NCBI GenBank assembly: GCA_021399345.1
Contig: JAAFKI010000154.1
Coordinates: forward strand, 1 to 64,000
DNA from: Candidatus Heimdallarchaeota archaeon
Lineage (GTDB): Archaea; Asgardarchaeota; Heimdallarchaeia; Heimdallarchaeales; Heimdallarchaeaceae
Direction: 5' to 3'
Length of the DNA stretch: 64,000 nucleotides
Part shown: piece by piece, positions 50,086 to 56,677 of the stretch
Numbering within the stretch: the first letter of the stretch is position 1
How the letters are laid out: the number at the start of each line of letters is the position of its first letter
Translations under genes and position numbers: made by a program
Notes under the pieces: generated by a model
Databases searched by the model: none
What the model was told of the DNA's origin: nothing
What the model saw: only the letters and a program-made list of their open reading frames with translations

Positions 50086-50393
50086 AGTTATTCAGATTAC
50101 AGAGAATCTGAACCAATTTAAAGTTTAGCGGAAAACCATTTGACCGTTAGTAACTAAGGAGTGAAAAGTTAGCCAATCTTACCAGAGCACCAGAAAAAGA
50201 ACGTTTGAGACCAAACTCCTCCCTATCAACCAAGTAGAGCAGCAGTTGGGTGGAAGACAATTGGTGGTAGATATGATTGCCCTCGTTACTTCTTTCGCAG
50301 GAAGGCTACATAGACAACGAAGAGGGAAAGCTCCGATGACGGGATGAGTTCTTGCCTTTAAATATCATTTTGCGGATTAGATAGTGAGACAAA

Positions 50394-52322
50394 ATGGTCA
50401 CACACACAGCAACCAACCTACAAGCTCTCCTTCCCAACACGTCAAAAGGAGTGATGAGAAGTTATCAGGTGGTGCTCAGATGTGCGGACCAAACCCAACG
50501 AGAAGAGATTAACCAGAGGATAAGAACACTAGAAAACCAGCAAGAACACTTACTCACCCCTCAAATTATCAAGCAAGCTGTGAATCTTTACCGAACTAAT
50601 CCGAAAGAAGAATTCTTCACTCGACAACTCTGTAAAACAGTGGGAAAAAGTCCGAATATAGCAGAAAGTGCCTTTCATTGGTTGTACATTGCCATCAAAG
50701 GTAAGATCAACAAGGAGAAGAAAGCACAAGGATTACTCAATTTCTTGTTGAAGAATCCCCAACAGTTAGTAGAATGGGTGATTTTTGGTCGGTCACCTTA
50801 TACTGAACGAAGCTTAGAAAATTATTGGAGATTGAAAAGGAGATATATCATTAACCTTCTTACCAGTACGAGAACTCAAACCGATTCTTATTGGAGAAAG
50901 AAGCATAAAACTAATTTTCATGCCCAGATCTTACAACTTAATACTCACCTTCCACACTGTACTCAATGTGAAGTACTTCAAGCTCTAGATGATGCCTTGT
51001 TCTATCATCAGCACGAATTCTCTCTCATCCCACAACTGACCAAGAATCAGCAAGCGTTTCTGAAGAAACTGCAACTTTTGAAAAAGGAACAGCACGTAGT
51101 TGTTCCTTTTCTCACCTCATGGATCAATAGTCCTCAAAATTCTCGATGGAAAAGTCTCAAAGAACTCTCAGAACAACTCACCATAATTATAGGTAAACCT
51201 TCCCGAAAACTCTTTTCTGTTGTTAGGCAGATAGTCGTTTTCACACTCTTTGATCATTACATGCAGAGTGTCCCTCAGTTAGTTCAGGTACTCCCTATAT
51301 CCAATGTTGTTCCCCCACCATTTAAACGAAAAAAGAAAGGAAGATTGCCAATAAAATTGTTAATGAAGAAAAATTATGTTATCACCCGCCAAGGGAATGC
51401 CCAAGAAGTAACAGATCAGATCAAGAAGCAAGGCTGGACCGAACTCGGTTTTCCGCAAAAAGGAAAACAAAAGTTAACTGCGCAAGTTCACTTTCCACCA
51501 AAAGTAGTAGAATATATTAAAAGTGGAGCACACATCAAAGTCCTTCAAGTAAGTAGTGGAAAAGCACCTAGGTTCAAACCTCGGGTGGATGTGGTTCTTG
51601 AAGGAGCACATGCTTGTTTCCATTCCTCTACACTTCTTCATCGTTATCTTAAAAAGATTTCAGCAAAGAAAACCTCTATCCTTGGACTAGATATTAACCG
51701 CCTAGGCCAATATATGATTGTGTTTAATGTCCCTGTATCACTCCCTCAAGATTTACTCAACTTGACAAAACAATATGAACATCTCAGTACAAAAGTTATC
51801 GACGAGCTGAACAGAGGGTTTCTCCGAAAACGAAAGGAGTATGATGCTCATGGAAGTTGTAAACTTAAAGGCGAACTCAATCGCGTCTATACTCGTCGTC
51901 ATAGACTCCTTAGAGAAATTGTCAGTCTTCTCCCTCACTTTCTCGCAGCAGTGCTGGTGAAAAAGAAATGCACAGTACTCAAGATTGAGCACCTCTCTAC
52001 AGACGCTACTGGCACCAAAGGCGCCTTAGCTAAAGCTATTTACACCATGCCCGATAGTTTGCTCATTTACAAGAAAGCGGTTTGGTTAGCTTCCCTAGAA
52101 TTAGGCTATGATATTCTCTTAAAAACTGTTCCTCCCTATCACACTAGTACTCGTCACTACAAGTGTGGAGGTACTGTTGTTCGTCAACCAGGACAATATG
52201 ACATAGCTCTATGTAAGAAGTGTAACCAACAGATTAATACACATAGTAATGCTGCTCACAATATCGCTTCCCTTCCAGGTACTCTCCTTCCTAATGATTC
52301 CTTCCCCTCACCGCACGTGTAG
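50394..52322 (+). CDS. TnpB/IS605-OrfB-like RuvC protein, 642 aa, with long N-terminal extension
   Basis: RuvC-I SILGLDINRLGQYMIVF, RuvC-II LKIEHLS, zinc-ribbon HYKC...CKKC, RuvC-III-like NTHSNAAHNIA. Confidence 0.8.
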   Translation: MVTHTATNLQALLPNTSKGVMRSYQVVLRCADQTQREEINQRIRTLENQQEHLLTPQIIKQAVNLYRTNPKEEFFTRQLCKTVGKSPNIAESAFHWLYIAIKGKINKEKKAQGLLNFLLKNPQQLVEWVIFGRSPYTERSLENYWRLKRRYIINLLTSTRTQTDSYWRKKHKTNFHAQILQLNTHLPHCTQCEVLQALDDALFYHQHEFSLIPQLTKNQQAFLKKLQLLKKEQHVVVPFLTSWINSPQNSRWKSLKELSEQLTIIIGKPSRKLFSVVRQIVVFTLFDHYMQSVPQLVQVLPISNVVPPPFKRKKKGRLPIKLLMKKNYVITRQGNAQEVTDQIKKQGWTELGFPQKGKQKLTAQVHFPPKVVEYIKSGAHIKVLQVSSGKAPRFKPRVDVVLEGAHACFHSSTLLHRYLKKISAKKTSILGLDINRLGQYMIVFNVPVSLPQDLLNLTKQYEHLSTKVIDELNRGFLRKRKEYDAHGSCKLKGELNRVYTRRHRLLREIVSLLPHFLAAVLVKKKCTVLKIEHLSTDATGTKGALAKAIYTMPDSLLIYKKAVWLASLELGYDILLKTVPPYHTSTRHYKCGGTVVRQPGQYDIALCKKCNQQINTHSNAAHNIASLPGTLLPNDSFPSPHV

Positions 52323-52389
52323 GGGACCCACACAAACGACGGTTAAACGCCCCCTGGCAAGTTTAACCAAGTTTCATAACGTGCGTTAT
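52317..52389 (+). other. Three consecutive hairpins at the 3' end of the tnpB-like gene (candidate element right end / guide RNA scaffold)
   Basis: GTGT-A-GG/CC-ACAC (52317-52333), GGTTAAAC/GTTTAACC (52341-52368), ATAACG-TG-CGTTAT (52376-52389). Confidence 0.45.
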
Positions 52390-52727
52390 AAAATTCAAAT
52401 TTCTTCTGCTCTGCTTTATTCTCTAAGGTATACTTCCAATCCTTCTCAACTTTCTCCATTCTTGCTTTAGTCTTATTTTCATTCATTATCTATCACCTAT
52501 ACTACTCACTAATTCATCTAATTTCAGATGCTAGGCTCATGTCACCAGCAGTGACTTTCTCCCTGTATCCTACAAGTAAGCTAGATATAAAAACACCAAA
52601 AACAAATTGCGAAGAACTGTTGAAAGTTATACTAGTATTTTCTTAATTCTAGAAATTGTCAAAGAACAAGCATTAAAAATCAAATGTTCCCATTTTTACC
52701 ATCAAAAATAATTCTGAGCTGAAATCG

Positions 52728-56588: not shown

Positions 56589-56677
56589 TGGAGCCCAGAG
56601 CGTGACTTGAACACGCGACAACAGGATTTCTGAGAATTCTCTTCAGTCCTGCGCTCTCCCAGCTAAGCTATCTGGGC
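56589..56677 (-). tRNA. tRNA-Phe(GAA) with probable 13-nt intron in the anticodon loop, CCA encoded
   Basis: GCCCAGA/TCTGGGC acceptor, GCGTG-TTCAAGT-CACGC T arm, anticodon stem CAGGA/TCCTG enclosing 20 nt CTGAAGAGAATTCTCAGAAA; intron about 56628-56640. Confidence 0.8.

What the first reader, a model, noticed from the sequence alone, without database searches (positions are those of the whole stretch)
50394..52322. Large TnpB-like nuclease with His in place of the RuvC-III Asp and a HxxC/CxxC zinc ribbon
Seen: RuvC-I GLDIN and RuvC-II KIEHLS are present, but the C-terminal motif reads NTHSNAAHNIA where TnpB has DxN (RDVNAAxNI), and the zinc ribbon is HYKC...CKKC. At 642 aa it has a roughly 350-residue region before RuvC-I. 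Known: TnpB and Cas12 are RNA-guided RuvC nucleases, and some RuvC-fold nucleases use His in the active site. Inference: a divergent, possibly domesticated RNA-guided nuclease or a nicking/binding variant.
Basis: partly seen in the sequence, partly recalled or inferred. Interest (0 to 1): 0.7.

Follow-up and report, generated by a model that had tools for sequence, protein, structure and literature searches.

The report
Histidine-variant TnpB with mini guide elements
A mobile element in Heimdallarchaeota (Asgard archaea) carries a large RNA-guided TnpB nuclease whose third catalytic aspartate is histidine in 77 of 80 relatives (glutamine in three, aspartate in none), and the same genomes hold tiny gene-free copies of the element that look like free-standing guide RNAs for it.

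Summary
The 642-aa ORF (50394-52322) is a divergent TnpB with D433 (RuvC-I), E532 (RuvC-II) and H617 exactly where TnpB/Cas12 have the RuvC-III Asp, plus an HxxC/CxxC zinc ribbon. It is not a decayed copy: of 80 distinct Asgard relatives 77 have His, 3 Gln, none Asp; D and E are kept; median dN/dS is 0.145; His uses both codons. It is not domesticated: the gene lies in an IS607-type transposon (50148-52386) ending in a structured omegaRNA whose pseudoknot covaries. The same site is empty, 100% identical over 260 nt, in a sister genome. The window copy has lost tnpA, so it probably moves in trans.

Following the omegaRNA uncovered 350-400 bp mini-elements with the same ends and no genes: promoter-like box, covarying 5' RNA domain, omegaRNA. 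They occur only in genera that carry this TnpB. A motif of their 5' domain is also embedded in the tnpB ORF under strong synonymous constraint.

Best reading: a catalytically competent D-E-H TnpB that retains its element and, in trans, the mini-elements. A natural D-E-N Fanzor cleaves DNA; Cas12m with an H-D-D site only binds. Cleavage is untested. New variant of a known kind.

The parts
50148..52386 (+). IS607-type element (2239 bp, one copy of the GT core included at the right end)
   Evidence: Ends found by comparing copies; joined flanks 100% identical over 260 nt to the empty site in G011
50143..50147 (+). Left-flank motif ACCGT (candidate TAM; GT = crossover core)
   Evidence: AC[ACT]GT at this place in 33 of 41 insertions (counted by hand from its list)
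50166..50184 (+). Conserved left-end sequence AAGTTAGCCAATCTTACCA
   Evidence: 2 mismatches to the consensus of other left ends
50165..50344 (+). Remnant of tnpA (IS607 serine recombinase), 60 codons
   Evidence: phmmer with intact TnpA of L013, E 2.3e-13; the intact TnpA is NF033518 transpos_IS607, 170 bits
50357..50364 (+). TATA-like box TTTAAATA in front of tnpB (promoter inferred)
   Evidence: Conserved in the upstream sequences; similar context in the mini-elements
50394..52322 (+). tnpB, 642 aa
   Evidence: TnpB/Cas12f profile matches
51690..51692 (+). codon of D433 (RuvC-I, GLDINR)
   Evidence: invariant in A4
51987..51989 (+). codon of E532 (RuvC-II, KIEHL)
   Evidence: invariant in A4
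52155..52223 (+). zinc ribbon H588xxC591 ... C607xxC610
   Evidence: invariant in A4
52242..52244 (+). codon of H617, in the place of the RuvC-III Asp
51204..51383 (+). Stretch of tnpB with strong synonymous constraint (codons 271-330); inside it hairpin 51243-51249/51265-51271 and TGTCCCTCAGTTA 51269-51281 shared with the mini-element 5' RNA domain
52304..52386 (+). omegaRNA scaffold core: stem 1 52304-52308/52321-52325; stem 2 52341-52347/52362-52368; pseudoknot 52312-52318/52379-52385
   Evidence: covariation
52387..52406 (+). Presumed guide (flanking DNA, about 20 nt; length assumed from known TnpBs)
   Evidence: position follows from the element end; guide role inferred

Best explanation
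The ORF is the tnpB gene of an IS607-type transposon of Heimdallarchaeota. Its protein belongs to an Asgard-wide TnpB clade in which the RuvC triad is D-E-H (D-E-Q in one lineage) and the zinc ribbon is HCCC. The 3' end of the mRNA with the right end forms an omegaRNA whose scaffold ends at the GT core, so the flanking DNA becomes the guide, and the RNP recognises the empty target site next to an ACCGT-like TAM. I think the D-E-H site still cuts or nicks DNA: D433 and E532 hold the metals and His617 acts as a neutral ligand or base in place of the Asp. Cutting the empty site would let repair copy the element back (retention). Gene-free 350-400 bp mini-elements with the same ends and omegaRNA would be moved by TnpA in trans and supply further guides to the same TnpB. 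Shown by sequence: family, conservation, element ends, omegaRNA structure, mini-elements, empty sites. Inferred: cleavage, the TAM, retention, trans guiding.
For: Family and triad. Purifying selection (median dN/dS 0.145) and both His codons. IS607 TnpA beside relatives, including divergent ones. Ends and empty sites. omegaRNA with covarying pseudoknot (97.8% of cells paired, 9 double changes against 1.7 in shuffles). The same pseudoknot arrangement is needed for ISXfa1 IS607 TnpB: PMC10711439. A neutral third residue can be active: GtFz1 has Asn there and cuts, D606N raises SpuFz1 activity: PMC11423790. Mini-elements confined to genera with this tnpB.
Against: No activity data. Cas12m with an H-D-D site binds one Mg and does not cut dsDNA (PMC10442227), although there His replaces the first Asp. 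D-to-N in TnpB and Cas12 did not raise activity. AlphaFold models were too poor to show the metal site. The mini-elements may be plain non-autonomous copies.
Confidence: 0.6

Rival explanations
1. Binding only: the D-E-H site has lost cleavage and the RNP is an RNA-guided roadblock or regulator that serves the element, for example by occupying or silencing the empty site (works like Cas12m or TldR).
For: Cas12m with H-D-D or N-D-D sites binds but does not cut (PMC10442227; PMC11013384); [quoted passage not shown]
Against: D433 and E532 are never lost in 80 sequences, which a dead site would not need; the gene is in a mobile element; a D-E-N Fanzor is active.
Confidence: 0.22
2. The catalytic carboxylate has moved: D603, nearly invariant in the zinc ribbon ((Y/W)D), takes the place of the RuvC-III Asp and H617 is structural. 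Fanzors and their TnpB kin show that a RuvC carboxylate (the Glu) can be relocated.
For: D603 is the only other nearly invariant acid in this part of A4; relocated Glu in Fanzors (PMC10711439).
Against: One divergent member (L086) has His there; no reliable model places D603 at the site; the His itself is as conserved.
Confidence: 0.12
3. Decayed or pseudogene copy of an ordinary DED TnpB.
For: tnpA is degraded in the window copy.
Against: The His is clade-wide, no relative has Asp, selection is purifying.
Confidence: 0.01
4. About the mini-elements: they are ordinary non-autonomous deletion copies whose omegaRNA is kept only because TnpA needs the right end; they do not guide TnpB.
For: They carry the same ends and the same target motif, as any non-autonomous copy would.
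Against: They keep a full omegaRNA, a promoter-like box and a separate 5' RNA domain with strong covariation (23 doubly changed cells against 8.1 in shuffles), more than transposase ends should need.
Confidence: 0.35

Closest known systems
IS607 transposons with TnpB and reRNA (ISXfa1, PMC10711439; ISFba1, PMC11061315)
   Same: IS607 TnpA in relatives, dinucleotide-core insertion, right-end RNA with a pseudoknot between the stem 1 loop and the bases before the guide, RuvC plus zinc ribbon at the C-terminus
   Different: 642 aa instead of about 390; triad D-E-H instead of D-E-D; zinc ribbon HCCC; left flank ACCGT instead of AGGAG/GAGGG; RNA is not RAGATH-18 in Rfam
Fanzor, in particular GtFz1 with a D-E-N triad (PMC11423790)
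   Same: Third RuvC residue is naturally not acidic
   Different: Fanzors have DPG at RuvC-I and a relocated Glu; here RuvC-I is DIN and the Glu is in the usual place; His instead of Asn
Cas12m (type V-M CRISPR, PMC10442227, PMC11013384)
   Same: His in a RuvC site
   Different: His is at the first position (H-D-D); no CRISPR system known here (not searched for); this gene sits in a transposon
TldR (TnpB-derived transcription regulators, PMC13418256)
   Same: TnpB kin with altered catalytic residues
   Different: TldRs are phage-encoded regulators; this family keeps D and E and is mobile
Other TnpBs of the same genome (L096-L112)
   Same: TnpB family; RuvC-III motif at the same place
   Different: Those aligned (14 of 17) have Asp at RuvC-III; 8 of them form a separate branch in the tree

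Membership tests
IS607-family transposon | IS607 serine-recombinase TnpA | tested here: met
   NF033518 above cut-off for two relatives; window copy has only a 60-codon remnant
IS607-family transposon | Insertion by a matching dinucleotide core, no long target duplication | tested here: met
   Shared GT at both ends, empty sites in sister genomes
IS607 TnpB (RNA-guided endonuclease) | RuvC fold with D-E-D triad | tested here: not met
   D433, E532 kept, third residue H or Q
IS607 TnpB (RNA-guided endonuclease) | C-terminal zinc ribbon of the Cas12f1-like_TNB type | tested here: met
   PF07282 in 26 of 30 members, E down to 1.2e-9; window protein 25.5 bits, 0.8 below the cut-off by hmmscan and 29 bits in the genome search; first ligand is His
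IS607 TnpB (RNA-guided endonuclease) | NCBIfam IS607_TnpB model NF038280 | tested here: inconclusive
   15 of 30 members match at E <= 0.01, best 1e-7; the window protein does not
IS607 TnpB (RNA-guided endonuclease) | Right-end omegaRNA/reRNA with pseudoknot | tested here: met
IS607 TnpB (RNA-guided endonuclease) | Guided DNA cleavage | not testable with these tools
   needs an assay
Fanzor / pro-Fanzor TnpB | DPG at RuvC-I and Glu six residues before the zinc finger | tested here: not met
   DIN; E532 is 56 residues before H588
Cas12m | His, Asp or Asn at RuvC-I with CRISPR array | tested here: not met
   RuvC-I is Asp; a CRISPR array was not searched for
TldR | Loss of RuvC catalytic residues in a host- or phage-fixed regulator gene | tested here: not met
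   D and E kept, mobile, several copies

The most novel reading that the evidence does not exclude
A two-tier transposon system: a D-E-H TnpB nuclease encoded by a few IS607-type elements is shared in trans by gene-free mini-transposons that are stand-alone guide RNAs with their own promoter, and part of the guide-RNA scaffold is also written inside the tnpB open reading frame.
Probability: 0.45. Interest if true: 0.85.

Novelty: new variant of a known kind. Interest (0 to 1): 0.66.

Why it matters
A clade-wide D-to-H change at the third RuvC residue, in elements that still move, is a natural test of which residues RNA-guided nucleases need for cutting; it complements the active D-E-N Fanzor and the non-cutting Cas12m. 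If the mini-elements guide TnpB in trans, one nuclease holds many non-autonomous copies in a genome, a separation of guide and nuclease genes like that seen in CRISPR systems. The hosts are Asgard archaea, the archaeal relatives of eukaryotes, which themselves carry the TnpB-derived Fanzors.

Tried and rejected
Decay: rejected, no relative has Asp. Domestication: rejected, the element is mobile. Fanzor-type active site: rejected for this family. Structure: two AlphaFold runs with the permitted shallow alignments were too poor (mean pLDDT 47 and 49); the best-scored part puts H617 in the first turn of the last helix, where RuvC-III residues sit. Rfam: no match in the seven loci searched (six with mini-elements, one with the window element) except a neighbouring tRNA. 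The first count of orphan omegaRNAs (12 in the own genome) includes contig ends where an element is merely cut by assembly; only copies of mini-element size were counted. The 2023 PNAS census of TnpB (doi 10.1073/pnas.2308224120), which may already list this clade, is not held. One search was a wrong query of mine.

Full report
What is there. The ORF at 50394-52322 encodes 642 residues. Library scans of the protein give only weak C-terminal TnpB/Cas12f matches (PF07282 25.5 bits, just below the cut-off). A profile of 30 relatives (A4) finds solved TnpB and Cas12f chains at E down to 3e-11, aligns D433 with RuvC-I and E532 with RuvC-II, and puts H617 opposite the RuvC-III Asp of 8hr5 (in the best hit, 8iaz, the aligned letter is Ala, probably a dead mutant). 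The genome is a Heimdallarchaeota MAG, judged from the titles of its nearest relatives, with four intact copies; the other three are 70-83% identical to the window copy.

Conservation. Twenty-two more loci lie in other Heimdallarchaeota, and 37 of 231 Asgard genomes have a match. In 19 intact close copies 232 positions are invariant and the median dN/dS is 0.145. H617 is CAC in 12 and CAT in 10 copies, so it is the residue that is conserved. Over 80 distinct sequences, down to about 20% identity, it is H in 77, Q in 3 (genomes G089 and G093) and never D; D433 and E532 are kept wherever they are covered. In A4 the invariant columns include D433, E532, H588, C591, C607, C610 and N619; D603 and H617 are nearly invariant. 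The same genome has 17 other TnpB loci; the 14 that were aligned have Asp at this place, and a tree with 8 of them separates them from this family with full support.

The element. Several copies have an IS607 TnpA upstream (NF033518, 170 bits), and so do divergent members in other families. The window copy has only a 60-codon remnant. Left ends share a sequence like AACTTATCCAATCTTACCA and right ends AAGTTTCATAACGTGCGT; 33 of 41 insertions have AC[ACT]GT before the left end (my count). Joining flanks at the shared GT restores reading frames in interrupted genes, for example L006, L013, L016 and L019 (my reading of the sequences). The joined window site is 100% identical over 260 nt to genome G011 and 94-96% in three others; that of L006 is 90% identical in G012. 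So the window copy inserted in this lineage, or left G011, recently. As it lacks an intact tnpA it probably moved with TnpA supplied in trans (inference; the order of tnpA loss and insertion is not known).

The omegaRNA. The right end folds into stem 1, stem 2 and a pseudoknot between the loop of stem 1 and the last bases before the guide. On 19 copies 97.8% of cells pair, with 9 doubly changed cells against 1.7 in shuffles; 0 of 500 shuffles reach it, and sliding the partner drops pairing below 50%. The same arrangement is described, and its pseudoknot tested, for the ISXfa1 IS607 TnpB, where the right-flanking nucleotide belongs to the scaffold (PMC10711439).

Mini-elements. A covariance model of the omegaRNA hits 12 times in the own genome and up to 27 times in relatives, more than there are tnpB copies. 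Some hits are contig ends, but 21 entries have the two ends 300-378 bp apart by its measure (from the inner left-end motif), and the 20 orphan loci, which include ten of them, have no tnpB match except a short 3' piece in L153. For 20 of the 21 the left end is clear; L175 is doubtful. The mini-elements hold a TATA-like box in a context like that of tnpB (CGAGTTTATATAGGAAAGTGCGGATA against CGAGTTTAAATAGCATTTTGCGGATA), a 5' RNA domain, and the omegaRNA. In the 5' domain 98.6% of cells of two helices pair, with 23 doubly changed cells against 8.1 in shuffles (0 of 500); one whole RNA folds with z = -3.9. The domain is found in 17 of 231 Asgard genomes, all in the two genera that carry the close tnpB family, and not in G009 (no tnpB match) or in G012 and G015 (only a distant subfamily). 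Six genomes of the genus show none. The mini-element L141 has an empty site in G011 at 91%.

An RNA module inside the gene. The frequency of identical codons along tnpB is mostly 0.50-0.71, but 0.77-0.88 over codons 271-330 and 0.92 in the last 12 codons, where the omegaRNA begins (the first 15 codons also reach 0.77). The inner peak holds a perfect 7-bp hairpin followed by TGTCCCTCAGTTA. This DNA is kept in seven relatives of about 60-70% protein identity; the same motif follows the inner hairpin of the mini-element 5' domain and occurs once in the 64-kb window. It is absent from the more distant subfamilies. I infer that the mini-element joins two RNA modules that lie about 1 kb apart in the tnpB mRNA. 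The hairpin in the gene hardly varies, so it has no covariation test, and its role is unknown.

Mechanism. That this is an IS607-type, omegaRNA-guided TnpB system is well supported by sequence. Whether D-E-H cuts is not shown. For: D and E are never lost; the elements still move; the Fanzor GtFz1 has Asn as third residue and cuts, N658D lowers its activity and D606N raises that of SpuFz1 (PMC11423790); in RNase HI the third Asp holds the looser metal A, near a conserved His (PMC8900815). Against: Cas12m with H-D-D binds one Mg and does not cut dsDNA (PMC10442227), though there His replaces the first Asp. Of the readings listed, I put D-E-H catalysis at 0.6, binding only at 0.22 and a moved carboxylate (D603) at 0.12.

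Novelty. The element and TnpB are known kinds. The D-E-H clade with its HCCC ribbon, and omegaRNA mini-elements with a structured 5' domain, did not turn up in the paper searches, but only open-licence papers are held and the main TnpB census is not among them, so an earlier listing cannot be excluded. Hence 'new variant of a known kind'.

Noticed in passing
L139:1541-1878, L141:1765-2099, L147:1843-2221 and others listed (own genome G000: C41 and C16): Gene-free 350-400 bp mini-elements with the ends and omegaRNA of the tnpB element, a TATA-like box and a covarying 5' RNA domain with no Rfam match; candidates for stand-alone guide RNAs.
   Followed up: yes
window 51204-51383: Strong synonymous-codon constraint inside tnpB, with a hairpin and TGTCCCTCAGTTA, a motif shared with the mini-element RNA.
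   Followed up: partly
L061-L071 (subfamily A6, 37-47% identical): These His-type TnpBs have no IS607 TnpA within about 1.2 kb upstream; whether they are still mobile was not tested.
   Followed up: no
L089, L090, L091 (genomes G089, G093): Lineage with Gln (NTQxNAP) instead of His at RuvC-III, D and E kept.
   Followed up: partly
L096-L112 (own genome): 17 other TnpB loci; in those read the RuvC-III Asp is present, but a Glu lies 6-7 residues before the zinc-ribbon Cys (or the Cys at its place), as in the Fanzor-type arrangement, with DLG at RuvC-I.
   Followed up: partly
L161 (G007:C21): The mini-element 5' RNA domain lies about 270 nt upstream of a complete tnpB, possibly a recombinant or ancestral form.
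   Followed up: no
L158:431-504: A mini-element sits directly in front of a tRNA gene (Rfam RF00005), 7 nt from its right end.
   Followed up: no
window 56589-56677: ARAGORN reports a tRNA with an odd four-base anticodon (aaga); not examined.
   Followed up: no
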